Assembly (NCBI RefSeq): GCF_009728735.1
Contig: NZ_CP024636.1
Location: forward strand, 1,096,705 to 1,160,704
DNA length: 64,000 nt
Direction: 5' to 3'
DNA from: Pantoea phytobeneficialis
GTDB lineage: Bacteria > Pseudomonadota > Gammaproteobacteria > Enterobacterales > Enterobacteriaceae
Shown: piece after piece, positions 52,894 through 63,705 of the stretch
How positions within the stretch are numbered: position 1 is the first letter of the stretch
How the letters are laid out: the number at the start of each line of letters is the position of its first letter
Notes under the pieces: model-generated
What the model was told of the DNA's origin: nothing
Databases searched by the model: none
The model's input: the letters and a program-made list of their open reading frames with translations, nothing else
Position numbers and translations under genes: made by a program

Positions 52894-52970
52894 GCGCCCT
52901 TAGCTCAGCTGGATAGAGCACCGGCCTTCTAAGCCGTAGGTCACAGGTTCGAATCCTGTAGGGCGTGCCA
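52894..52970 (+). tRNA. argU: tRNA-Arg (anticodon TCT)
   Basis: Standard cloverleaf of 77 bases. The acceptor stem GCGCCCT pairs with AGGGCGT (G-U at the end), the D arm is TAGCTCAGCTGGATAGAGCA, the anticodon loop CTTCTAA reads TCT (decoding AGA), and the T arm is CAGGTTCGAATCCTG. The CCA end is encoded (52968-52970). Closely similar to E. coli argU, which is also an integration site (prophage DLP12). An integrase gene follows, so its 3' end is the probable attachment site. Confidence 0.97.
52948..52970 (+). other. Probable attL in the tRNA-Arg 3' end
   Basis: Tyrosine integrases of this type usually recombine in the T arm and acceptor end of a tRNA gene, here TTCGAATCCTGTAGGGCGTG and CCA. 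The tRNA is intact on this side and the integrase begins 166 bases later. I did not find a second copy in the window, so attR should lie beyond base 64,000. The exact core is not determined. Confidence 0.6.
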
Positions 52971-53135
52971 TCTCCTCTTCTTCCGATATCCTTTTTAGTC
53001 TGCGAATTCCCTCTAACTCCTTGCCAATGCTGCATTCCGGGTCTTTTGATTTCTATTCAGTTCCGCTAAAAACTTTACTTTTATGGGGGCATCATTGGGG
53101 GCACTGGCCTGTTCAATGGAGTGAGATGCCCCCAA

Positions 53136-54320
53136 ATGAAGCTCAACGTCCGTCAAATCGAGACTGCCAAGCCGAAAGACAAAGCCTATAAACTGGCTGA
53201 CGGCGGCGGTCTGTACCTCGAAATCTTCCCCACTGGTGGTAAAAGCTGGCGGCTGAAATACCGCTTTGCAGGAAAAGAAAAGCGCGTGGTGTTTGGCCTG
53301 TATCCTGCTGTGACGCTTGCGCAGGCGAGGGGCAAGCGTGAAGACGCGAAAAGGATACTGGCTGCCGGTGGTGATCCCGGCGCAGCCAAGCAGGAGGCGA
53401 AGCAGGCCAAAATCCTCGCGGTGAACAACAACTTTGAAGCGATGGCGCGCGATTGGCATGAAACAAAGCGGGCTAACTGGTCGCAAGGCTATGCTGACGA
53501 CATTCTGGAATACCTGCGCAAAGATATTTTTCCCCATATCGGCAAAATGCCGGTCACTGAAATCACACCCATGTTGATGCTGGCGGTGCTGCGCAAAATG
53601 GAACAACGCGGCGTGCTGGATAAGCTGAAGAAAACCCGCCAGGCGTGTCGGCAGATTTTCACCCACGCCATCGTAACGGGCAGGGCGCAGATTAACCCCG
53701 TGACTGATCTGGCGGCGGTGCTGAAACCCCCGAAGCAAAAGCATTTCCCTTATCTGCTGAATAACGAGTTAGGCGCGTTTATGCGCGCGTTGTGTGGTTA
53801 TAGCGGCAGTAAGATGACTCAGTACGCTACACGCTTGCTGATGCTGACAGGGACGCGAACGATTGAATTACGCGCTGCGGAGTGGCGTGAGTTTGATTTA
53901 AGTAAAGGACTCTGGGAGATCCCCGAAGTACGTATGAAGAAGCGCCGTAAGCATTCGGTGCCGCTGTCTCGGCAGGCTGTTGAGTTGCTGGAGGAGATAC
54001 AGCAGCTCACCGGGCGTGGGAAGTATGTGTTTCCGGGCAGGAGCAACGCCGGAAAGCCGATGAGTGAAGCCACGATTAATCAGGTGATCAAACGGGTTGG
54101 GTACGATGGGAAGGCTACTGGGCATGGGTTTAGGCATACCATGAGCACGGTTTTGCATGAGCAGGGGTATAACTCGGCGTGGATTGAAGTGCAGCTCGCG
54201 CATGTGGACAGGAATTCAATTCGCGGGACGTACAACCATGCGCAGTACATGGATGGAAGGAGGGAGATGTTGCAGTGGTATGCGGATTATTTGGATGGGT
54301 TGAGGGATGGGGGCAACTAA
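53136..54320 (+). CDS. P4-type tyrosine integrase
   Basis: Site-specific recombinase for the island. The 394-residue protein starts MKLNVRQIETAKPKDKAYKL, with the N-terminal arm-binding domain DGGGLYLEIFPTGGKSWRLKY and FGLYPAVTLAQAR, a core-binding helical domain, and a catalytic domain with Arg (GTRTIELRAAEW), HxxR (HGFRH), His (AHVDRN) and Tyr (RGTYNHAQY). An in-frame GTG at 53121 is an alternative start. Two GGGGGCA repeats lie just upstream (53083-53102). It points away from the tRNA, a normal arrangement. Confidence 0.93.
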   Translation: MKLNVRQIETAKPKDKAYKLADGGGLYLEIFPTGGKSWRLKYRFAGKEKRVVFGLYPAVTLAQARGKREDAKRILAAGGDPGAAKQEAKQAKILAVNNNFEAMARDWHETKRANWSQGYADDILEYLRKDIFPHIGKMPVTEITPMLMLAVLRKMEQRGVLDKLKKTRQACRQIFTHAIVTGRAQINPVTDLAAVLKPPKQKHFPYLLNNELGAFMRALCGYSGSKMTQYATRLLMLTGTRTIELRAAEWREFDLSKGLWEIPEVRMKKRRKHSVPLSRQAVELLEEIQQLTGRGKYVFPGRSNAGKPMSEATINQVIKRVGYDGKATGHGFRHTMSTVLHEQGYNSAWIEVQLAHVDRNSIRGTYNHAQYMDGRREMLQWYADYLDGLRDGGN

Positions 54321-54370: not shown

Positions 54371-54520
54371 ATGCATGTGAAGGCTGAGGGGAAAGAGTGG
54401 TTGCTGATTCCGCTGGAGAACTCTCCTATTCTGTCGCGGGGGACACCTAAGCCGAGAGATAACTGGCAGATGTCCGGAGAAGGGCTGATGATCCTCTTTA
54501 GTGCGGACTCGTTAAACTAA
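54371..54520 (+). CDS. Short open frame downstream of the integrase
   Basis: A 49-residue frame, MHVKAEGKEWLLIPLENSPI followed by LSRGTPKPRDNWQMSGEGLM and ILFSADSLN. No Shine-Dalgarno is evident and two stop codons lie just before it in frame. I do not recognise it; it could be a remnant of a longer island gene or a small accessory protein. Composition resembles the integrase more than the AT-rich cargo that follows. Confidence 0.3.
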   Translation: MHVKAEGKEWLLIPLENSPILSRGTPKPRDNWQMSGEGLMILFSADSLN

Positions 54521-54707
54521 GTTTACCGTCAATTGCATGCTAGTAGTGAATATTCTAAACTTAGAAAAAATTGTATGTATGCTTATGTATCATAAATAGT
54601 TAATTTTGAAATAATAGTTTTAGCATGTATTTCTGGGGTGATTAGGAAATTATCACCGCCAGTAATACATGCTTTTTAAGTGCTGCCGACTTATAATTGT
54701 AAATTAT

Positions 54708-56606
54708 TTACAATGATGGCGATACGTACCCAAGGCCGATTCGACTGACACTAACACCAACGCGTTGAATATAATTTAGCGCATATTCATATCGCAATTT
54801 TGCAATTACTTCTACTTCTTTTTTTTCACTCTTTATCTTTAATCCATCAAGCTCAAGTTGTAACTCTAGCAGAGAAAGTTTTCCATCCTGAATTACCGCT
54901 CCTTGTTGTGCTACGAATGTACGCCACTCAACTTTCTGAATCGCTGGAGTTGAGGAATCTTCTTTTGGCGACTTGATACCAAGTCCTAATATGTTTCCAT
55001 CATATTCAACATAGCAGTAAGAACCACTATTAATATGATGTGCTGTTAGTTCATTTGGGTTTGTAACTTTTTGTAATCGTATTGCAGTGAAAGGTCGTAA
55101 ACTAACATCATTACCTTTCTTGAATGCGATTGTGCTTTGACCTGGTTGTAAGTCGCAAGCTGGTGTTGCACAGACCCACCAAGTATCATCCAATTTAAAT
55201 ACATGTCCGCTATCTAATTGCTCTGTATTTACTTTTCCCAAAACATCCATTCTTGATGGAAGGCAGCAAACGTAACGATTATATTGGCTAATGGCTTTTT
55301 TATTGTCGGCATCGTTATCTAAGTTGACACGGTAATGATCTTTGAAAGTGAATCCTGTTTCTTCATCTACAGAGAAAATCTTTTTTCCGAAATCAGCAAC
55401 ATTTTCTTCTACTAAGAATGACAACATTTCAGATTGACGTGAAACATGGTCTTTTAAATTGTAATGACGAAGGAGTTGTAATTGTTCATGGGGAAGCCCT
55501 TCCTTTCCTGGTTTAAGTATGGTTTCGTAGAATTTTGCAAGTGCATATTTGTTTTTTAAAGATGCATCCTCTACTTCTGCACCTATTCTACTTATTTCAT
55601 CTCGATACTTCGCTGATAAAAGGCGAGATGGTGTAGGCTTCCAATCGACAAGAGCATGTTCAAGTTCGGCTAAAAGGTTTTCAGGGCCTTTTTTTACAAA
55701 ACACGCAAACCCGCGCGAAGTTCGCAACCATTTACAAGCATCAGAAACATTCCACGATAAATCTTTTGGTGGGTTTTCCGTAAAGTCAGCTAGATATTTT
55801 TTTTCAAAGGTTCGCATTGCCCAGTGAAAGAAGCATTTTTTTTGCGAACCAATTAAACTTAGCTCATTTGACCATTCAGCTAGACTCGCATAAGCCCCTC
55901 TTCCTTGCATGAAATCACTTATAGCCTTTTCTTGACCTCCATCTGGGTGACGTGCTTGAATATATGAAGCCATGTCGAGTTTTTCTTCGATGAGACCACG
56001 ATCAAATTCATCTGCATTTTCTTTCTCAGTAATTATATCATCGAGGATATTTATTTGAGCAATACATTCTGCATCGTAAAGTGATGTACGACTTCTCATT
56101 AAAGCACGAAGGGATTCATACATGGCTTTATCTAGCTCTTCGCTAGTATGGACTACTACTAAATTGAAGTGCTGATTATCCAATACAGAAGAAAGGATTT
56201 TTCTGGCTATATCGCCTCCTGTACCTGTTTCTGCACCCTCTAAATTGTAATCTAAAATCAATAAATCGGATTGATGAAGGTGATCAGCAAGTTGTCCTGG
56301 AGTCTCACTGCCTGCTGTTTTTTCTGTAGAGCTCGAAGAAACGCCATCATGAATATCAATAATAAAGCCCGGATTTTGACTGCGAAATTCTTTTATCAAC
56401 TTCATGACTTCACTTGCAATCACAGATTCTTGCCATTTCTTGCTTTTTGACCGAGCTTCTATTTGTCGAGAGTTATCTTCGCCAGCAATTTTTGAATTAA
56501 ATATTTCTTCCCACGTTGGGTATTGATCGTCAATGATTAATACAGAGCGCAGCGGAGATATAAATGCTTCGCGAACCAAATTGTTAAAAGTATTTGCCTC
56601 AGCCAA
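54708..56606 (-). CDS. Receiver-like domain protein, third gene of the methylase/GHKL operon
   Basis: A 632-residue protein. TTG 56606 is the likely start: GGGGG lies about eight bases upstream, the frame overlaps the GHKL gene stop by eight bases, and no Met precedes the first strand. Residues 18-165 look like a response-regulator receiver: acidic pair Asp26-Asp27 (SVLIIDDQ), candidate phospho-acceptor Asp119 (LLILDYNLEG) and Thr154 (VVVHTSEE), but with a roughly 50-residue insertion and divergent spacing. Residues 170-632 are unrecognised, largely helical, with a beta-rich part near 440-560 containing VCATPACDLQPGQ. No nuclease motif is visible. Presumably the partner of the histidine-kinase-like module next door. 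Confidence 0.8.
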   Translation of the reverse strand: MAEANTFNNLVREAFISPLRSVLIIDDQYPTWEEIFNSKIAGEDNSRQIEARSKSKKWQESVIASEVMKLIKEFRSQNPGFIIDIHDGVSSSSTEKTAGSETPGQLADHLHQSDLLILDYNLEGAETGTGGDIARKILSSVLDNQHFNLVVVHTSEELDKAMYESLRALMRSRTSLYDAECIAQINILDDIITEKENADEFDRGLIEEKLDMASYIQARHPDGGQEKAISDFMQGRGAYASLAEWSNELSLIGSQKKCFFHWAMRTFEKKYLADFTENPPKDLSWNVSDACKWLRTSRGFACFVKKGPENLLAELEHALVDWKPTPSRLLSAKYRDEISRIGAEVEDASLKNKYALAKFYETILKPGKEGLPHEQLQLLRHYNLKDHVSRQSEMLSFLVEENVADFGKKIFSVDEETGFTFKDHYRVNLDNDADNKKAISQYNRYVCCLPSRMDVLGKVNTEQLDSGHVFKLDDTWWVCATPACDLQPGQSTIAFKKGNDVSLRPFTAIRLQKVTNPNELTAHHINSGSYCYVEYDGNILGLGIKSPKEDSSTPAIQKVEWRTFVAQQGAVIQDGKLSLLELQLELDGLKIKSEKKEVEVIAKLRYEYALNYIQRVGVSVSRIGLGYVSPSL

Positions 56607-59568
56607 AATTGGCCCCCTTGAAATTAATCACGAAATTAGCGCCTGCCAATAGCCTAAATTTACGATCTGTGGCGTACTCAATAGAATGGCCACTGGCCAT
56701 TAAATTTACCCGGCAGAGATATAGCCCAATACCTCTGCCTCCACTGGATTTTCGAGTGAAAAACATTTTAAAAAGATTTTCCTGATCAACCGGATTTATA
56801 CCGGGTCCATTATCAGAAATAATTACTTTGTCGTCTAAAATTGAAAGATAAACCTCAGCATTTGGAGTGCTAGATGTCACTAACCAATAGACACTATTGT
56901 TCACTAGGTTCACAAAAACAGGATATATCCGAGATGGTTGATCAAATATTGAGAATGCTCGGAATTCTTTCGAGGCGTGTATTTTTATTGCTCGGTTATG
57001 TAAAACTGACTCAAAAAAACTGATGATATAGTCTTCAATATCTTTACCGAAAATTTGCCGGCGCGTTTTGTTTCCTGACACCTTCAGTGGTGATAAAAAC
57101 TCAAGTTGTTGACTTAGTGCCTCAAATCCTTCAACAACCAGATTAGTACCAGGAATATCTCCGATTGTACGGATTTTCCTGATACCTTCCCTAACCATAC
57201 GCTCATTATTGGTCAGTTCATGGCCTAAGATTTCTACTGTAATACCAAGTTGGGCAACTTGATTGAGACGGTTTAAATCATCACGCAAAGTAATATTGTC
57301 TGCCGTACCTTGCCGGGCTATCAGTTCAATATTGATATTTTCGCTCATTAACTCAAGTGCATCTAAATATGATTGGAAAGTATCCTCGTTCTCCATATCA
57401 AGCTTCGTGTATATTGCCTTCATCTGTTCTAAAGCTTGATCGAGACCAAGAAGTCCTATCCGGACCTGATCAACTAATGGCATAGCTTCGAGATGAAAAG
57501 CCTTATTACGTTCATCAAAGAGGGTTGATACTCGGTCTCGTTCTGCTCCTTGTAGAGTATCAATAGATTTACGCCAAGATCTTAAACGCGCTTGTAACTT
57601 GCTGGCATGACTACTGAGCTGTTTTTGAGCAATATCTTCTGGTTTTGCAGGATTGATGCTCTGAATTGCGTCTGCTCGCTTCTGTTCTAGAACGTGAATA
57701 CGCTCCAACATTTCAGTGTACATAGTTCTGAATGTTCTATAATCATCTTCCGCAGAGCCAAGCTTTGCGGGCGCGCCGACTACTCGTAAATCGGCTAAAC
57801 GCATACTCAACTCACTAATCAACGTCTGGGTATTATCCAAATCCAGTTCATTGTTAATATGGATGTTAGCATTTATTTTCTCTGTCTCATTAACCATTGA
57901 AAATAAAATCGGCAAGTTTGTATTTAGTCGTGAGCGAAATTTTTGTGCGTTCAGTTTCGCAAGTTCTTTGCGTTCTTTTTCAGCTCTATCCTTTTCATTT
58001 TGAGCTCTAATATCAGGGAGTAGTTCTTTTCGAAGGTCGGAATTACTGCCGAAATATTCGTAAGCAGCACGCTTGAGTATGTTTTTTACAACCTCTCGAA
58101 GCACTTTAGTAGCACGGTTATCAATAAAACCTTCTCGCCCAGCTTTGTCACGTAAGTTTGGGTTCAACTCTCTTGAAATTGCGATCCGTCCAAACATACG
58201 TCTAGCATTCCAATATTCTCGACCAGCATTAACGCTACGTTGCCTTTCAATCTCAAAGAAGTCGTTAGTTTCACGCCCATAAGGCAGAACGCGCAATCCG
58301 TTACGAAAGATCAGGAAACCACTATGTTGCTTAGCAAGTCCCAAAAAGCGAGTGAAGTTCTCATTAGAAAGGGTTGAACTATCTCTCATTAGTTCGAATG
58401 TTGCTATATGAAGACTGAATGGCCCAATAAATGTGGTAGGCCCTTTAGGGATAGTTAAATCTTTAGGAGGATAAATTACATAATCTGTTCCAAGCTTTCT
58501 CCATTCTCCAAAGGCTTTTACTTGGCCTCTAAAAACACCATATTCATCAATGTTTCCAGATAAAACGTGCTCCATTTCTTCTGTAACTTCGCGGTTAATA
58601 GCTTCTCTGTCATTTTCAATGATGGTTGATGAGAACGTCTCCGACCATGTCTTCACTTCATATGAAAATCTAGGGTCAAACGCATTGAACTCACTGGCAT
58701 CAGCTGCAACATAGGGATCAGTAAATGCAGAAAGGGTACTGAAAAAAGAATCTCGAATATTTTTAATATTTGAATCTAATTCGATAGAAGGTAATTGCGC
58801 TTTGAGATCATAGTTGATGTCAGAAACAATTAATGCAGTACCATGCTGTCTTTTTTCATTCCAAACCAACCAAGGTTCAAAATGGCGTTTTTCGAATCGT
58901 GCATTGATGATTGTGTTAGTTATTAGTTCGGATGGCTTTTTTGCTTCTGGATCATCCTCCAATATAACCCGATCATAAGTTTCCCAAGCAAGCTTGAGCC
59001 GATTGGCGCGTTTTTCGTCTGAAATGTTACCAGAAATATTATCTTTCAAACGTTCGAATAAATCTGGTAGCAACTGAAAGAGATCAGTCCTTTCAGCGAA
59101 TTGGGTTACAGGTATTTCAATATCAGATAAGACCAAATAGGGATTTTCAAAAATGCGCCAATCAATAAGTGCAGCAACGAAGTCTGTTTTTTTTCGTTTG
59201 CTGACAATTAAGAGAAGTGGTCCAAGATTTGCTGAAGACAGCCGGCCAATCCCCTTTTGACCCTGCTTGGTTCGTTTTGGCAAGCCATCTCTGTCATCAT
59301 CATCTGAAGTATTTGTATCGTATTTTGAATCTGTGCCTACCACGAGCCAACGATTGATAAACTCATCATAGTTCATGCCGTGGCCGTCATCGAAGACGGC
59401 TGCTACCGGCTCAGGATCATCGAAGATATGGAGGCTTACGTCGCGTGCATATGCATCATAGGCATTTTTCCAAAGCTCCGAAATCGCTGTGGGACAGTCG
59501 GCGATTTGCTCGCGTCCTAAGTGATCAACCGTTCTGGCTTGTGTACGAAAGGCAAGAGTCTCAATCAT
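56599..59568 (-). CDS. Dual GHKL ATPase: MutL/Hsp90/MORC-like plus histidine-kinase-like
   Basis: A 989-residue protein. ATG 59568 overlaps the methylase TGA (ATGA). The N-terminal module has the GHKL N box (ISELWKNAYDAYA, Glu31/Asn35/Asp38), G1 DDGHGM (60-65) and a GQKGIGRLSSANLG lid, followed by an S5-like middle region (FRNGLRVLPYGRETNDFF, GRIAISRELNPNLRDKAGREGF). A long coiled coil covers about 520-760. The C-terminal module resembles a histidine kinase: H box LGHELTNN (His about 783), N box VNLVNNSVYW (about 887), G1 SDNGPGI (about 919), and FFTRKSSGGRGIGLYL (936-950). Such proteins occur in MORC-related restriction-modification cassettes. Substrate and output are unknown. Confidence 0.85.
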   Translation of the reverse strand: MIETLAFRTQARTVDHLGREQIADCPTAISELWKNAYDAYARDVSLHIFDDPEPVAAVFDDGHGMNYDEFINRWLVVGTDSKYDTNTSDDDDRDGLPKRTKQGQKGIGRLSSANLGPLLLIVSKRKKTDFVAALIDWRIFENPYLVLSDIEIPVTQFAERTDLFQLLPDLFERLKDNISGNISDEKRANRLKLAWETYDRVILEDDPEAKKPSELITNTIINARFEKRHFEPWLVWNEKRQHGTALIVSDINYDLKAQLPSIELDSNIKNIRDSFFSTLSAFTDPYVAADASEFNAFDPRFSYEVKTWSETFSSTIIENDREAINREVTEEMEHVLSGNIDEYGVFRGQVKAFGEWRKLGTDYVIYPPKDLTIPKGPTTFIGPFSLHIATFELMRDSSTLSNENFTRFLGLAKQHSGFLIFRNGLRVLPYGRETNDFFEIERQRSVNAGREYWNARRMFGRIAISRELNPNLRDKAGREGFIDNRATKVLREVVKNILKRAAYEYFGSNSDLRKELLPDIRAQNEKDRAEKERKELAKLNAQKFRSRLNTNLPILFSMVNETEKINANIHINNELDLDNTQTLISELSMRLADLRVVGAPAKLGSAEDDYRTFRTMYTEMLERIHVLEQKRADAIQSINPAKPEDIAQKQLSSHASKLQARLRSWRKSIDTLQGAERDRVSTLFDERNKAFHLEAMPLVDQVRIGLLGLDQALEQMKAIYTKLDMENEDTFQSYLDALELMSENINIELIARQGTADNITLRDDLNRLNQVAQLGITVEILGHELTNNERMVREGIRKIRTIGDIPGTNLVVEGFEALSQQLEFLSPLKVSGNKTRRQIFGKDIEDYIISFFESVLHNRAIKIHASKEFRAFSIFDQPSRIYPVFVNLVNNSVYWLVTSSTPNAEVYLSILDDKVIISDNGPGINPVDQENLFKMFFTRKSSGGRGIGLYLCRVNLMASGHSIEYATDRKFRLLAGANFVINFKGANFG

Positions 59569-60710
59569 ACTTTCTCGATTTGGTATTCTTGGACGCACGA
59601 AAGGACATTAGCATGCGTCTGGTCTAAGGTTTTATCAATTAAATAACTTTTAATATGTTTGATCAAGTACTTACCTAGCTCAACAGGAACAGCGTTACCA
59701 ATTTGTCGTCCTGCCGCAGTTAATCCCCCGGTAAAGGTGAAATTATCTGGAAATGTCTGGATTCGGGCTGCTTGCCGCAATGTTATGCCATGATGTTCGG
59801 TTGGATGTACGAAACGACCTTTTGATGGATTAATACATGCAGTAGTCATCGTTGGGGCGGGTTCAGCAGGATCAATTCGACCATAAACATCTTTGTGCCC
59901 ATCATGTTGTTCATGGCATGGAAGAATTCGTCCTGAATCTTTGCGACTACCACCATTCGGTGGTGTATTACTAAATGCTTCAATCAAATCAGGCCCATGG
60001 TTCATATGGATGTCATTTTCATCATTAGCTGGGGCTGGTTTAAAAACATTAGCGCATGGTACCCACAGTTTCTGTCCAGATTTAACTTTTCCGGGTGCAG
60101 AGTGAGTTGCTTGAGGGGGCCATATAAAATTTTGCACATCTGCTGCGTCTCTGACACCTAAGATGAAAACCCGTTTTCGTCTTTGCGGTACACCAAAATC
60201 TCTGGCATCCAATACAACAGGTCTGAAAACGTGATATCCAGCCTTAGAGCCTTCCTCGTAAAACTTTTCGAGAAATTCTTTATGACGTTCCCATAGTATA
60301 CCTGGAACATTCTCCATGAGGAAAACGCGTGGGCGAAATGCTTTAACAAAACTAAAGTATGAAAGAACCAACTGGTTACGTGGATCATTGACCCCGGCAT
60401 CAAGTATTCGATGCGTCGAGAACCCTTGGCATGGAGGTCCTCCCAAAAGAAGATCGCATTGAACATTTCCAAGAATTTCATCACGTACTGACTCGGGAAC
60501 GTACTCAAGTATGCTTTTATCTAAAACCTTTGCATTTTTTGCCGCATCATACTTCAGTATGTTTTCTTTGTACGTTTTTACAGCATAGGCGTCATTTTCA
60601 ATAGCAACGGCAATTGTGCAACCAGCCTGTACAGCTGCAAGTGAGAACCCTCCTGCACCTGCGAATAGATCGATGGCAATAGGCTTAATTTCACGATTTT
60701 TTTTATTCAT
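59565..60710 (-). CDS. DNA (cytosine-5) methyltransferase
   Basis: A 381-residue C5 methylase with canonical motifs: I DLFAGAGGFS (14-23), IV GGPPCQGFS (catalytic Cys94), VI LMENVPG (Glu133), VIII QRRKRVF (176-182), IX RQAARIQTFPDNF and X GNAVPVELG. The target-recognition region between VIII and IX is about 120 residues; specificity cannot be read. ATG 60710 is favoured; a TTG at 60728 is possible, and neither has a strong Shine-Dalgarno. First gene of a three-gene operon with the GHKL and receiver-like proteins. No Vsr-like or restriction endonuclease gene is adjacent. Confidence 0.92.
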   Translation of the reverse strand: MNKKNREIKPIAIDLFAGAGGFSLAAVQAGCTIAVAIENDAYAVKTYKENILKYDAAKNAKVLDKSILEYVPESVRDEILGNVQCDLLLGGPPCQGFSTHRILDAGVNDPRNQLVLSYFSFVKAFRPRVFLMENVPGILWERHKEFLEKFYEEGSKAGYHVFRPVVLDARDFGVPQRRKRVFILGVRDAADVQNFIWPPQATHSAPGKVKSGQKLWVPCANVFKPAPANDENDIHMNHGPDLIEAFSNTPPNGGSRKDSGRILPCHEQHDGHKDVYGRIDPAEPAPTMTTACINPSKGRFVHPTEHHGITLRQAARIQTFPDNFTFTGGLTAAGRQIGNAVPVELGKYLIKHIKSYLIDKTLDQTHANVLSCVQEYQIEKV

Positions 60711-60985
60711 TCGAGTGTTAACGCTCAACTGAGTTTAGTTTGTTGATCAGTTTATGGGGTGGTCATTTCAAACACAATGTTAGCGAAACAGCCTGGGTAA
60801 CTTGTACAGCTCATCAGCTTCAGCTCCGCAGTTTGTGCTAAGCGGCCCAAATGTTTCTTACATGAAGTCTAACAATGGGTTCTAAGGTAAGGAAGCTTAA
60901 ATAACCGGTTTCAAAATGGATGGAACGAAGATGCTAGACGTTAGTTTTCAAAGATGTCTGTTTAAGTGGCAAGAACCCAAAACTT
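60711..60985. other. Non-coding spacer upstream of the methylase operon
   Basis: AT-rich spacer without a supportable gene. It should hold the promoter of the minus-strand methylase operon, but I could not fix a convincing -35/-10 pair. Together with the iteron block it forms the only gene-free stretch longer than 300 bases in the window (60711-61173). Confidence 0.5.
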
Positions 60986-61187
60986 CCCCCACTTAGCCCC
61001 CACTTTGCAGGTGTTTCACCGTTCCCCCACTTCATTTTTTGGTTTTTTTGTAACCTATTGTTTATTATTGGTTTTATTATCCTCCCCCGCTTGGCGTATA
61101 TATACAGGTGGGGAGTGGGGGAAATCAGCTCAAAAAGTGATGACTGATACTTCTTCCCCCACATGTGCCCCATTTAATCCCCCACTT
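60986..61187. repeat. CCCCCACTT iteron cluster
   Basis: Nine-base iterons: exact CCCCCACTT at 60986, 60997, 61024 and 61179; one-mismatch copies at 61084 (CCCCCGCTT) and 61156 (CCCCCACAT); an inverted copy with one mismatch at 61113-61121 (GAGTGGGGG). Between them lies a very AT-rich segment (61033-61080). The cluster is downstream of the primase remnant. Iterons plus an AT-rich block suggest a replication origin or primase-binding region, by analogy with P4 crr/ori; the iteron sequence differs from that of P4. Confidence 0.7.
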
Positions 61188-62700
61188 TAAGACCCTGACA
61201 AAGTGGCCTGACAAGCTCACCATCGCAAATTATCAGACCGTCTCTTACTAGTTTTTCCAGCCAGCGGTTGAATTTCTTGGAAACGTCGAACCCCATTTTC
61301 CTCATGTCATCACGAAGCAAAGCACGAGTGCATGGTTCACCGTTGGCAGTGCGCAAACGAATGGCTTTCCAGAGCGCCAAATGGTTTTCAGTCAAACGTG
61401 AAATTCCAGCCAACTCAGCATTGCCTTCATCATCCGACTCATTGACCGGTCTTCCTTCATCCTTCAGGACAAGAGAACTGATCTGATCGCCATCGTTATC
61501 GATATAGAGATCGACCGGAAAAAGGTCGTATGCCTGCCGTGGTGGTTCCTCGGCATCTTTCATCTTGGTGCAACTGAGGATTAGCGCACCACCTTCACCT
61601 TCCCGACGCACGTTAAATTCAACATCCAGAGCCTCCCTGAACGCACTGGAACTGCGCGCGCCTCTGTCTTAATCCTTACCGGAATGATGAATAATCAACA
61701 CGGTGGCCTGCGTTGCTGCCTTGATGAAGTCACAACCCTGAATAAACGCGCCCATATCTTTCGCCGCGTTTTAATCGGAACCGCCAAAGCAGCGGGCGAG
61801 GGTATCGAGGATAATCAACCTTACCGGCATGCCGGTTGCGGCTTTAACGTCGTTGGCCGCTTTGATCACCTGTTCAACGCTTTCCGGGTTGGCAGGGAAG
61901 ATGGCACAATCCACGCGGTACAGCGAATCGATAGGGCTTCCGCCGTTCAGCGTTTCCCCCCATGCCTGGATACGGCGGGGAACACCGATACCGCCTTCAC
62001 CAACCACGTAAATAACCGCACCCTGTGTCACCGGCTTACCTGCCCAGGGTTTCCCGGTGGCGATATGGCATCCCCAGGATACCGCCAGGAATGATTTATA
62101 TGATCCGCTGGCACCATAGGCGCTGGTGACGGATGAGCTAGGCAGATAACCTTTAATCAAATAGTCCTGCCGGGTATCGAAACCATCAGAACCTTTGCGC
62201 AATGGCAACGCGGTACTTAACTCCATGTAAGTTTGCTCCATGCGGGTGAGTGGGATTTCAGTACATTCAGGTTGATACATCTGTTCCTGAAAGGCAGTTT
62301 TGACGGCATCAATGCCGTACTGCTGGCGATAATCATCCCAGTCGCAGGCAATTTCGCCGGGTGGGAAAGATACCCAGCCATTCACAGTCCGAGCAGCCTG
62401 CACTGCCTGCTCCATACCGGTATTTGCAGAGCCATCAGAATGCAGGTCATGATCGCCCGCCAGGATCATGCAGCTTTCGGGATAACGGTTTTTCAGGGCC
62501 AGCGCGACATTACGCAGGTTATTGGCCGACATCGCAGCAACCACCATATTGTTAGCCACCTGGCTGAGGGTTAATGCCGTGGCGTAACCTTCAGTAATGA
62601 CGATGTTTTTGGTTTCGTGGGATGTGTTGAGCGCGATAAACGCGCCTTTTATCTGCGAACCTGGCAGCAGCCGTTTTTCTCCTCCCGCATTGATCAGCAA
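61174..62700 (-). pseudogene. TOPRIM primase-helicase (RepA-like AAA), truncated and interrupted
   Basis: One reading frame runs from about 62700 to 61174 and is broken by two in-frame TAA codons (61771-61773 and 61669-61671), with no frameshift. The parts are a TOPRIM domain (NIVITEGYATALTL, LAGDHDLHSDG), a RecA-fold helicase with Walker A GASGSYKS and Walker B LIILDTLARCFGGSD, then after the first stop NAAKDMGAFIQGCDF and LIIHHSGKD, and after the second DRGARSSSAF and a winged-helix-like end (LWKAIRLRTANGEPCTRALL). The N-terminal zinc/primase part is missing: the homologous frame begins at LINAGGEKRLLPGS right after a stop. Stable pieces could be made but the gene looks dead. Confidence 0.85.
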
Positions 62701-62779: not shown

Positions 62780-63454
62780 TTATCCGATGTCCCCATGAGT
62801 TGTTGTGTCGTCAGGTGCTTTCAGATATTCATTGAACTCATCAATATTAGTCTTTTTTAGTAACTGTTTAGTGTATTTCACTTCAATATCATCAGGCATT
62901 ATCTTTGCCCACCAGTAGAAGAAGAACCCAACTTCAAGGATAATAAATGAGCTGAATAACCAATTCAGATTTATGGATGGAGATGTTTTGAAGATGATGC
63001 TCATGTAAATAGTGAGGAAAACAAGGGCAACGGATAACAGGATACCTGTTGACCTTCTTTTTGTGAGTGCACGGTCATTGAGGTGAAATTCATTTCCGTT
63101 GCCTTCAACAAAAGGCACGGTTTTATGTAATCCATGCATTTCTTCCTCTGTACACTTTGAGAATAAATAGCAATATAGATTTCCATATTTATCATTTATC
63201 AGATTGGTTGCGATTTTCACAGCACGATATTTCATCATTCTTTTTATCATGACCATTTCTTTTGAGTCTGCATATCCAGACTCTTCGAGCAACTTTTTAG
63301 CAAGATTTAATTGCTCAGTTCTATGGGTGGAGTATTTGAATAACAACTCAAAAAGATCTTTGAATTTTAAAACAAAGATAACGACAAAAACAAATATGAT
63401 GAAGTCGATATTAATCTTCTGAATCTTATCCCATATTGAAAAAATATCATCCAT
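62780..63454 (-). CDS. Three-helix membrane protein of unknown function
   Basis: A 224-residue protein starting MDDIFSIWDKIQKINIDFII at ATG 63454, with GGAGAG five bases upstream. Hydrophobic segments lie near residues 15-32, 140-160 and 168-188; a charged helical part separates the first two, and a Lys/Asp-rich tail follows. Strongly AT-rich. It lies between the truncated primase gene and the IS element, so it may have come with the event that removed the primase 5' end. Not recognised; possible exclusion or defence membrane protein is speculation. Confidence 0.65.
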   Translation of the reverse strand: MDDIFSIWDKIQKINIDFIIFVFVVIFVLKFKDLFELLFKYSTHRTEQLNLAKKLLEESGYADSKEMVMIKRMMKYRAVKIATNLINDKYGNLYCYLFSKCTEEEMHGLHKTVPFVEGNGNEFHLNDRALTKRRSTGILLSVALVFLTIYMSIIFKTSPSINLNWLFSSFIILEVGFFFYWWAKIMPDDIEVKYTKQLLKKTNIDEFNEYLKAPDDTTTHGDIG

Positions 63455-63705
63455 AAAAACTCTCCAATATATGTTAGTGACTGTTGGTTTTAAGAAGTCG
63501 GTATGTGCTGATACATGGGTGAGCACAATAAACTTATATATAGCACGAAAGTATGTGCGGGCACCATTGGCATAAAATGATATGACCATTCACCTCGTGC
63601 TTTACGATACAGATTTTGAGTTATGAAGTTTCTCACCGAGGAAGTGTAATAAGCAGTGGGATGTATTCAGGATCGTAACTTGACGTTGTAACTGGTTGTA
63701 CTAAC

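What the first reader, a model, noticed from the sequence alone, without database searches (positions are those of the whole stretch)
54708..60710. Three-gene C5 methylase / dual-GHKL / receiver-like operon: candidate methylation-linked defence system without an obvious nuclease
Seen in the sequence: methylase, 989-residue ATPase and 632-residue receiver-like protein overlap by 4 and 8 bases on the minus strand, are AT-rich and sit in an integrase-bearing tRNA island. Known: MutL/MORC-type GHKL ATPases occur beside C5 methylases in predicted restriction-modification cassettes. Inference: the methylase marks self, while the ATPase and its partner sense or act on unmodified DNA. The lack of a recognisable endonuclease and the two-component look of the second and third proteins make it different from textbook restriction.
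Basis: partly seen in the sequence, partly recalled or inferred. Interest (0 to 1): 0.88.

Follow-up and report, generated by a model that had tools for sequence, protein, structure and literature searches.

The report
Methylase, DNA-clamp kinase, receiver defence operon
Three overlapping bacterial genes (a DNA-marking enzyme, a DNA-clamp-like ATPase fused to a signalling kinase, and its receiver protein) fill a mobile-element slot that carries antiviral systems in some related strains; the family was described in 2021, but how it would work without a recognisable DNA-cutting enzyme is unknown.

Summary
In detail: a C5-methylase (59565-60710), a 989-residue dual-GHKL protein (56599-59568) and a 632-residue receiver protein (54708-56606) overlap by 4 and 8 bases, at 40% GC against 55%, near tRNA-Arg and an integrase. 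It is not a new kind: the HEF_HK / Response_reg_2 pair with upstream C5-methylase was published in 2021 (PMC8011034) as a two-component-like, restriction-linked family. My additions: (1) the trio is the only recognisable cargo between integrase and primase-like genes; after near-identical integrases, same-genus relatives carry type I R-M, Lamassu (twice) or a helicase-nuclease gene (4 of 7 examined; 3 uninformative). (2) In 80 fetched loci the receiver gene follows the kinase gene in 79 and a C5-methylase lies within 3 kb in 71; no other ORF cluster except Vsr-like (34) recurs in more than 6. (3) The kinase's N-terminus models like SMCHD1/MORC2/MutL, its C-terminus like a histidine kinase; relay and ATPase residues are nearly invariant. 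(4) The receiver fold is split by a helical insert and ends in an orphan domain with an invariant Cys. (5) Methylases are exchanged while kinase and receiver stay paired. Best reading: a self-contained, methylation-linked defence system signalling by phosphorelay; its effector step is inferred.

The parts
59565..60710 (-). C5-cytosine DNA methyltransferase, first gene of the operon; catalytic Cys94 codon at 60429-60431
   Evidence: PF00145 6.2e-61; TIGR00675 165 bits over its cut-off of 100.65; nearest solved structure M.HaeIII 1.3e-35; catalytic Cys in 71 of 72 aligned methylases, the other one a gap; codon read
56599..59568 (-). Dual-GHKL kinase-like protein, 989 aa: N-terminal SMCHD1/MORC/MutL-like ATPase module (residues about 10-520), long helices (about 484-742), HEF_HK/DHp with His783, C-terminal HATPase_c kinase domain
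57220..57222 (-). codon of the predicted phospho-accepting His783
   Evidence: His in 81 of 81 aligned kinase-like proteins; codon read
54708..56606 (-). Receiver-like protein, 632 aa: split receiver domain (18-170 plus 291-325), helical insertion (about 171-290), helical linker (326-447), orphan C-terminal domain (about 448-632)
56250..56252 (-). codon of the predicted phospho-accepting Asp119
   Evidence: Asp in 80 of 80 aligned receiver-like proteins; codon read
55689..55691 (-). codon of Lys306, read as the receiver's lysine after strand 5, beyond the helical insertion
   Evidence: Lys in 80 of 80; strand 299-305 in the model; codon read
55155..55157 (-). codon of Cys484, invariant residue of the orphan output domain
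   Evidence: Cys in 80 of 80; codon read
54484..60983 (.). cargo slot: the stretch without DNA match to relatives that share the flanks; the trio are its only recognisable genes here
   Evidence: blastn of L137-L140 against the window: left edge between about 54290 and 54483 by relative; right edge about 60984 in L137 and L139 and 61083 in L140; L138 shares the left flank only. Other ORFs of 60 aa or more in the slot are 60-116 aa and overlap the trio or lie at its upstream edge
53121..54320 (+). tyrosine integrase of the element
   Evidence: PF00589, PF22022, PF13356; 94-98% identical copies in three same-genus genomes
52894..52970 (+). tRNA-Arg(tct) next to the integrase, presumed attachment site
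   Evidence: ARAGORN; no second copy of an att core found
61771..62700 (-). primase/helicase-like gene of the element (Toprim_3 and AAA_25), first piece
   Evidence: part of the shared right flank
61174..61611 (-). second piece of the same primase/helicase-like family (phrog_2850 positions 331-465); the gene reads as two ORFs here

Best explanation
A self-contained, methylation-linked defence cassette of the known HEF_HK/Response_reg_2 family, carried as the single recognisable cargo of an integrase/primase element. The C5-methylase marks its target sequence on host DNA. The 989-aa protein is a DNA-clamp ATPase of the MORC/SMCHD1/MutL kind fused to a cytosolic histidine kinase; it senses incoming DNA, most likely DNA that lacks the mark, and autophosphorylates at His783. 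The phosphate passes to Asp119 of the receiver protein, whose orphan C-terminal domain, or its complex with the clamp, then blocks the invader. Shown by computation: gene order, conservation, modelled folds, intact catalytic residues, methylase exchange, and other (mostly known defence) cargo at the same place in relatives. Inferred: sensing of methylation state, phosphotransfer, the output step, and that defence is the function.
For: Slot substitution: the window's integrase was matched in 18 of 40 same-genus genomes and the seven closest were fetched. Four of them (integrase 79-97% identical) carry after the integrase type I R-M (L140), Lamassu LmuA/LmuB (L138, L139) or a UvrD-helicase/IrrE/PD-(D/E)XK protein that PADLOC matches by its helicase part (L137); three of these four (not L138) also share the right flank, and in the window the place holds only the trio. 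A published survey describes such a place in P4-like satellites as a reservoir of anti-phage systems (PMC9122126, passages). Trio as a unit: receiver gene directly after the kinase gene in 79 of 80 loci; a C5-methylase over 150 bits within 3 kb in 71 of 80, directly upstream in 59, after the pair in 11, 970 bases upstream in 1. Self-containment: among 1166 neighbouring ORFs only a methylase cluster (71 loci) and a Vsr-like cluster (34 loci) recur in more than 6 loci. Sporadic: Response_reg_2 in 10 of 392 family genomes including this one, 10 of 154 genera, 0 of 14 control genomes. Machinery intact: Asp26 80/80, Asp27 79/80, Asp119 80/80, Thr154 77/80, Lys306 80/80 in the receiver; His783 81/81 and both ATPase sites nearly invariant in the kinase. 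Exchange: kinases 56-63% identical, with receivers 37-54% identical by region, sit with methylases only 30-33% identical and in another gene order (L024/25/27/31/37/47/63 against L028/34/41/58).
Against: I found no phage or methylation experiment on it. In L099 a dual-GHKL protein and a short receiver-type protein with the same C-terminal motif (profile match only 3.8e-4; no Response_reg_2 or HEF_HK match) lie next to a complete EcoRII-type R-M set (C5-methylase, Vsr, EcoRII-N/C nuclease), which fits a regulator or accessory of R-M as well. Among 150 nearest flanking ORFs, HNH_2 occurs in 6, Mrr_cat in 4 and RE_AspBHI_N in 3, so nuclease partners exist in some loci; my clustering (blastp, half coverage) would miss nucleases of unlike families. 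9 of 80 loci have no C5-methylase passing my limits within 3 kb; two of these are cut by contig ends and L053 has none within about 10 kb. Of the seven elements examined, one with a 98% identical integrase shows only small ORFs, not scanned, before its contig ends, one contig is too short and one is a different element. Only 10 cargo ORFs of the four were scanned; L137's cargo is not a complete known system. No PADLOC model fits the receiver protein, and the kinase has one partial match.
Confidence: 0.55

Rival explanations
1. A regulator of restriction-modification: the kinase/receiver pair is a two-component system that tunes expression or activity of the adjacent methylase or of other R-M systems, as proposed in PMC8011034; any restriction is done by genes elsewhere.
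For: Two-component domains with intact His and Asp; a look-alike pair next to a complete EcoRII-type R-M set in L099; the published authors' own reading.
Against: In 47 receiver-like proteins scanned, no Pfam family other than Response_reg_2 reaches E 0.001, so no DNA-binding output domain is recognised; the trio is the only recognisable cargo of its slot and no nuclease-bearing R-M set recurs beside it in more than 6 of 80 loci. A MORC/SMCHD1-like module as input domain fits DNA handling better than transcription control.
Confidence: 0.22
2. A disguised type II-like restriction system: the receiver's orphan domain (or the clamp's middle part) is an unrecognised nuclease that the kinase switches on at unmodified sites.
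For: Methylase beside a large ATPase and an orphan C-terminal domain with invariant Cys484 and Arg622 and near-invariant Asp485, Arg605 and Tyr608. GHKL domains do occur in type II enzymes: the N-terminus matches the BbrUII/HgiDII restriction enzyme model, 59.9 bits over residues 21-142, far below its cut-off of 550.
Against: In the receiver protein only two acidic positions beyond the receiver domain are conserved in at least 85% of 80 proteins (Glu393, Asp485) and no Lys or His, unlike PD-(D/E)XK or HNH sites (recalled). The methylase is exchanged without replacement of the pair, hard to reconcile with a nuclease reading a fixed site of its own.
Confidence: 0.15
3. A 5mC-linked DNA repair or maintenance cassette: a MutL-like clamp with Vsr handles T:G mismatches from methylcytosine deamination, and mobile elements carry it to tolerate their own methylase.
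For: Vsr-like cluster in 34 of 80 loci, Vsr in 25 of 150 nearest flanking ORFs; MutL-like fold.
Against: No Vsr in the window's slot, and L012-L020 and L022, the nearest-relative loci, are not in the Vsr-like cluster; Vsr commonly accompanies C5-methylases in general (recalled); repair does not explain the kinase/receiver pair or the shared place with defence systems.
Confidence: 0.06

Closest known systems
HEF_HK (PF19191) / Response_reg_2 (PF19192) two-component-like elements, Bellieny-Rabelo et al. 2021 (PMC8011034)
   Same: Same domains, same architecture (HATPase_c_3 + HEF_HK + HATPase_c, their group 1, 174 of 222), adjacent genes (91.6% linkage over 644 regions in the paper), C5-methylase upstream.
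   Different: The paper reads them as a possible signalling system controlling R-M. It notes loop extensions and a split fifth strand with a conserved Lys in the receiver. In the five of seven text parts that I read it does not report slot substitution, methylase exchange, a large helical insertion or the SMCHD1/MORC2-like model.
MORC and paraMORC GHKL ATPases of bacterial R-M operons, Iyer et al. 2008 (PMC2292703, passages only)
   Same: N-terminal GHKL ATPase with S5 domain in operons with cytosine methylases and Vsr; proposed DNA-looping engine.
   Different: Those operons mostly carry helicases and nucleases; here a histidine kinase core is fused at the C-terminus and a receiver protein stands in place of a nuclease.
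BbrUII/HgiDII-type restriction enzymes (NF050001)
   Same: GHKL-type match at the N-terminus (residues 21-142).
   Different: 59.9 bits against a cut-off of 550.
SMCHD1 / MORC2 / MutL ATPase modules (solved structures)
   Different: Those lack a histidine kinase domain (recalled); function is not shown by fold.
BREX, DISARM, Druantia (methylation-linked defence)
   Same: Methylase plus large ATPase; [quoted passage not shown]
   Different: The receiver matches no PADLOC model and the kinase only one REase_II model in part; the methylase resembles MTase_II, DruM and DrmMII models among the 25 of 63 shown.
Detocs two-component-like defence (recalled, not fetched)
   Same: Histidine kinase and receiver used for anti-phage signalling rather than transcription (recalled).
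   Different: Detocs has an ATP-cleaving effector and no methylase (recalled).

Membership tests
HEF_HK / Response_reg_2 two-component-like family | Response_reg_2 domain over the curated cut-off | tested here: met
   69.8 bits against 27
HEF_HK / Response_reg_2 two-component-like family | HEF_HK domain over the curated cut-off, with HATPase_c_3 before and HATPase_c after it | tested here: met
   29.2 against 24.1; 67.6 against 25; 54.2 against 26.4
HEF_HK / Response_reg_2 two-component-like family | adjacent genes, C5-methylase nearby | tested here: met
HEF_HK / Response_reg_2 two-component-like family | phosphotransfer from His to Asp | not testable with these tools
   only conservation was tested: His783 81/81, Asp119 80/80
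Type II restriction-modification | sequence-specific DNA methyltransferase | tested here: met
   PF00145 and TIGR00675 over cut-off; specificity itself not determined
Type II restriction-modification | recognisable cognate endonuclease gene in the cargo | tested here: not met
   the trio are the only recognisable genes of the slot and none carries a nuclease family
Type II restriction-modification | hidden nuclease inside the receiver or kinase protein | tested here: inconclusive
   no conserved acid/Lys/His cluster in the receiver's output half, but its C-terminal domain has no assigned fold
MORC / paraMORC GHKL ATPases | N-terminal GHKL ATPase with S5-like part and intact ATP-site residues | tested here: met
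   E31, N35, D60, G62, G64, K105, G106, G108 in 81 of 81
MORC / paraMORC GHKL ATPases | family-specific MORC motif | not tested
   no MORC profile was run
Histidine kinase | DHp with His, HATPase_c with N, G1, F and G2 boxes | tested here: met
BREX / DISARM / Druantia | signature genes of those systems in the operon besides a methylase | tested here: not met
   PADLOC on the three proteins: receiver 0 families, kinase 1 partial REase_II match, methylase 63 families of which 25 shown, all methylase models
Anti-phage defence system | demonstrated protection against phage | not testable with these tools
   only context: place shared with recognisable defence systems in three relatives and a candidate in a fourth, of seven examined

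The most novel reading that the evidence does not exclude
A nuclease-free form of restriction: a bacterial SMCHD1/MORC-like DNA clamp, wired to a histidine kinase, recognises DNA without the host's 5-methylcytosine mark, and through a phosphorelay to a split receiver with an orphan Cys-containing output domain closes or recruits the complex so that foreign DNA is silenced or the cell arrested. The methylase is exchangeable, so specificity comes from the methylase while the clamp and receiver read mark absence generically. It would be a prokaryotic counterpart of methylation-dependent MORC/SMCHD1 silencing in eukaryotes.
Probability: 0.22. Interest if true: 0.88.

Novelty: new member of a known kind. 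Interest (0 to 1): 0.57.

Why it matters
The family has been described from sequence (2021), and the searches I ran showed no experimental test of it. Slot substitution gives a good reason to test it as defence, and the data narrow the mechanism: a mostly self-contained trio, an intact phosphorelay, no visible nuclease, an exchangeable methylase and an orphan output domain. If it protects, it would show two-component phosphorelay used for epigenetic self/non-self discrimination, and would give a simple bacterial model for MORC/SMCHD1-type clamps.

Tried and rejected
Identity of the receiver's C-terminal domain: Pfam on 47 diverse members found nothing at E 0.001 beyond Response_reg_2, and a weak cREC_REC match in 5; sequence searches of the PDB gave one chance-level match with the single protein (E 0.25), none with the family profile up to E 1 and one for the C-terminal part (E 0.54); Foldseek against PDB and viral models gave no match at E 0.001, and the VIA list is filled mainly by receiver domains, so the C-terminal part is barely tested. 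Profile-profile comparison with PemK (5 sequences), EVE (14) and ASCH (4 of 6 matches; one with a stop and one weak were left out) gave probabilities under 1%, as did the receiver part as negative control, while two subsets of the domain's own alignment gave 100%. A search for stand-alone copies gave 24 proteins of 100-332 aa; 17 of 24 have no contig over 6 kb and I read the set as pieces of the same family, but did not check each.

Covariation of the methylase's recognition region with receiver regions: no special link (rank correlations 0.28-0.32 against 0.66-0.78 between kinase and receiver regions, 72 systems, not corrected for relatedness). Near relatives (kinase over 60% identical) have recognition regions 54-76% identical while the receiver insertion is 23-45% identical, so I think the receiver is not the site reader.

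An att repeat for the element was not found by exact matches of 14 bases or more. Promoter and terminator scans gave fewer sites than the shuffled mean. DefensePredictor (PMC13092281; passages only) lists a HATPase/REC candidate in a figure legend; I could not tell whether it is this family. E. coli genomes (megablast of the 6.2-kb trio) and phage records (tblastn of the receiver protein) gave no match; plasmids gave 3 records.
Full report
What is there. Three genes run on the minus strand from 60710 to 54708: a C5-cytosine methylase (59565-60710), a 989-aa protein with two GHKL ATPase domains (56599-59568) and a 632-aa protein with an N-terminal receiver domain (54708-56606). The overlaps are 4 and 8 bases and the GC content is 0.402 against 0.550 for the first 52 kb. 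A tRNA-Arg(tct) at 52894-52970 and a tyrosine integrase at 53121-54320 lie on one side, and a primase/helicase-like gene that reads as two ORFs (61174-61611, 61771-62700) on the other.

Known or new. Pfam names the kinase-like protein HATPase_c_3 + HEF_HK + HATPase_c and the partner Response_reg_2. Both of these new domains were introduced by Bellieny-Rabelo and colleagues (PMC8011034; I read parts 1 to 5 of 7 of the text). They report 91.6% linkage of the two genes over 644 regions, frequent C5-methylases upstream, and Vsr or nucleases nearby, and propose a cytosolic two-component system linked to R-M. The window's genes meet the sequence features of their group 1. A full-text search for these domain names found two papers and a search for 'paraMORC' seven. 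Neither those lists nor the rows shown by five broader searches (20 of 28 papers, 20 of 1,787, 2 of 2, 20 of 1,993, 14 of 14) show an experimental test of the family, judged from titles and abstract starts; few were opened. Most subscription journals are not in that library.

Defence context by substitution. The window's integrase was sought in 40 same-genus genomes; 18, this one included, hold a match at E 1e-100. I fetched the seven closest others. In four (integrase 79-97% identical) the DNA matches the window up to 54.29-54.48 kb, and in three of those (not L138) again from 60.98-61.08 kb, with DNA unrelated to the window between. Ten cargo ORFs of these four were scanned. PADLOC and Pfam name type I R-M HsdM/S/R in L140, Lamassu LmuA/LmuB in L138 (same species as the window) and L139, and in L137 a 1130-aa protein with IrrE, UvrD-helicase and PD-(D/E)XK domains that PADLOC matches by its helicase part (GajB and DRT models), beside two ORFs without matches; some further small cargo ORFs were not scanned. 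The other three: L141 (98% identical integrase) shows small ORFs, not scanned, in the 2.1 kb before its contig ends, L142 ends too soon, and L143 (65%) is a different element. In the window the corresponding place, about 54.48-60.98 kb, contains the trio and no other recognisable gene. Rousset et al. describe a slot between psu and int of P4-like satellites as a reservoir of anti-phage systems (PMC9122126, passages). The window's element has an integrase and a primase-like gene but I did not test for psu, so I do not call it a P4 satellite.

A mostly self-contained trio. With a kinase-like alignment the tool found 128 relatives in named genomes and kept the best 80, from Proteobacteria and a few other phyla. 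The receiver gene follows directly on the same strand in 79 of 80; L054 is cut by its contig end. A C5-methylase scoring over 150 bits lies within 3 kb in 71: directly upstream in 59, after the pair in 11, 970 bases upstream in L091. Of the nine without, L029 and L054 are cut by contig ends, L087 and L089 have weaker matches (130 and 96 bits) within 3 kb, L033, L050 and L077 have a match 5-7 kb off, and L053 and L082 show none. Clustering 1166 neighbouring ORFs gave only two clusters in more than six loci: the methylase (71 loci) and a Vsr-like one (34 loci); unlike nuclease families would not cluster. Among 150 nearest flanking ORFs, Pfam finds Vsr in 25, HNH_2 in 6, integrase in 5, Mrr_cat in 4 and RE_AspBHI_N in 3. 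In L012 the gene before the trio is guaA, and by eye it is so in L018 too, while glmS follows the trio in L017 and L020; their other flanks were not identified. So no separate nuclease is a standing partner. Response_reg_2 occurs in 10 of 392 family genomes, this one included, each in another genus, and in none of 14 control genomes, as expected of accessory genes.

Modularity. Kinase and receiver regions co-diverge (rank correlation 0.66-0.78), methylase and kinase less (0.38-0.39) over 72 systems. Sister systems with kinases 56-63% identical carry methylases only 30-33% identical, with the gene directly upstream in L024, L025, L027 and L063 but on the receiver's side in L028, L034, L041 and L058. 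This suggests that the kinase-receiver pair works with different methylases and does not carry a fixed site of its own. Relatedness among the 72 was not corrected for, so the correlations are descriptive.

Wider family. A second branch has the same trio with Response_reg_2, HEF_HK and C5-methylase: L102, among genes that look like a prophage by eye, and L100 (the domains of all but L100's methylase, which I named by eye, are). L099 has a short protein with the same C-terminal motif and a dual-GHKL partner next to a complete EcoRII-type set: C5-methylase, Vsr and EcoRII-N/C nuclease. Neither of that pair matches Response_reg_2 or HEF_HK, and the motif match is weak (3.8e-4), but it is the strongest result against the self-contained reading: there the pair accompanies an ordinary R-M system.

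Mechanism and verdict. Best reading: the methylase marks self; the clamp-kinase senses foreign DNA, probably by lack of the mark; phosphate passes from His783 to Asp119; the output domain or the closed complex blocks the invader. Defence is supported by context only; sensing, phosphotransfer and output are inferred. It is a member of a published family, with new evidence on function and anatomy, hence 'new member of a known kind', with an open mechanism that makes it worth a direct test.

Noticed in passing
window 60985-61186: Seven copies of an AGTGGGGGA-like 9-mer (up to one mismatch, mixed strands) cluster within about 200 bases between the primase-like gene and the methylase, out of 11 in the whole window. 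The total of 11 is not above chance (37 of 100 shuffles reach it); the clustering is what stands out and was not itself tested. Perhaps iterons of the element or a regulatory region.
   Followed up: partly
window 61174-61611 and 61771-62700: The element's primase/helicase-like gene matches one family (phrog_2850) in two separate ORFs, so it seems interrupted in this genome, while L139 and L140 have single ORFs of 600 and 672 aa at the corresponding place.
   Followed up: no
L099:2983-9213: C5-methylase, Vsr and EcoRII-type nuclease convergent with a 353-aa protein bearing the same C-terminal motif and a 724-aa dual-GHKL protein: perhaps a nuclease-bearing relative of the trio.
   Followed up: partly
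L102:8130-13928 and L100:10861-16611: Second-branch trios whose kinase G1 box reads NNGPG instead of DNGPG, which may mean altered kinase activity; L102 lies among prophage-like genes, named by eye.
   Followed up: no
L012:6839-14855 and L018:6328-14816; L017, L020: In two distant genera the trio sits just downstream of guaA, and in L017 and L020 next to a glmS-like gene, suggesting preferred insertion places (partly named by eye).
   Followed up: no
L103:5389-5910 (beyond the window's end): A hexapeptide-repeat acetyltransferase-like ORF lies about 3 kb beyond the primase-like gene; named by eye only.
   Followed up: no
window 62780-63589: A 269-aa ORF, membrane-like by eye, with no Pfam, NCBIfam or PHROG match at the limits used.
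   Followed up: no
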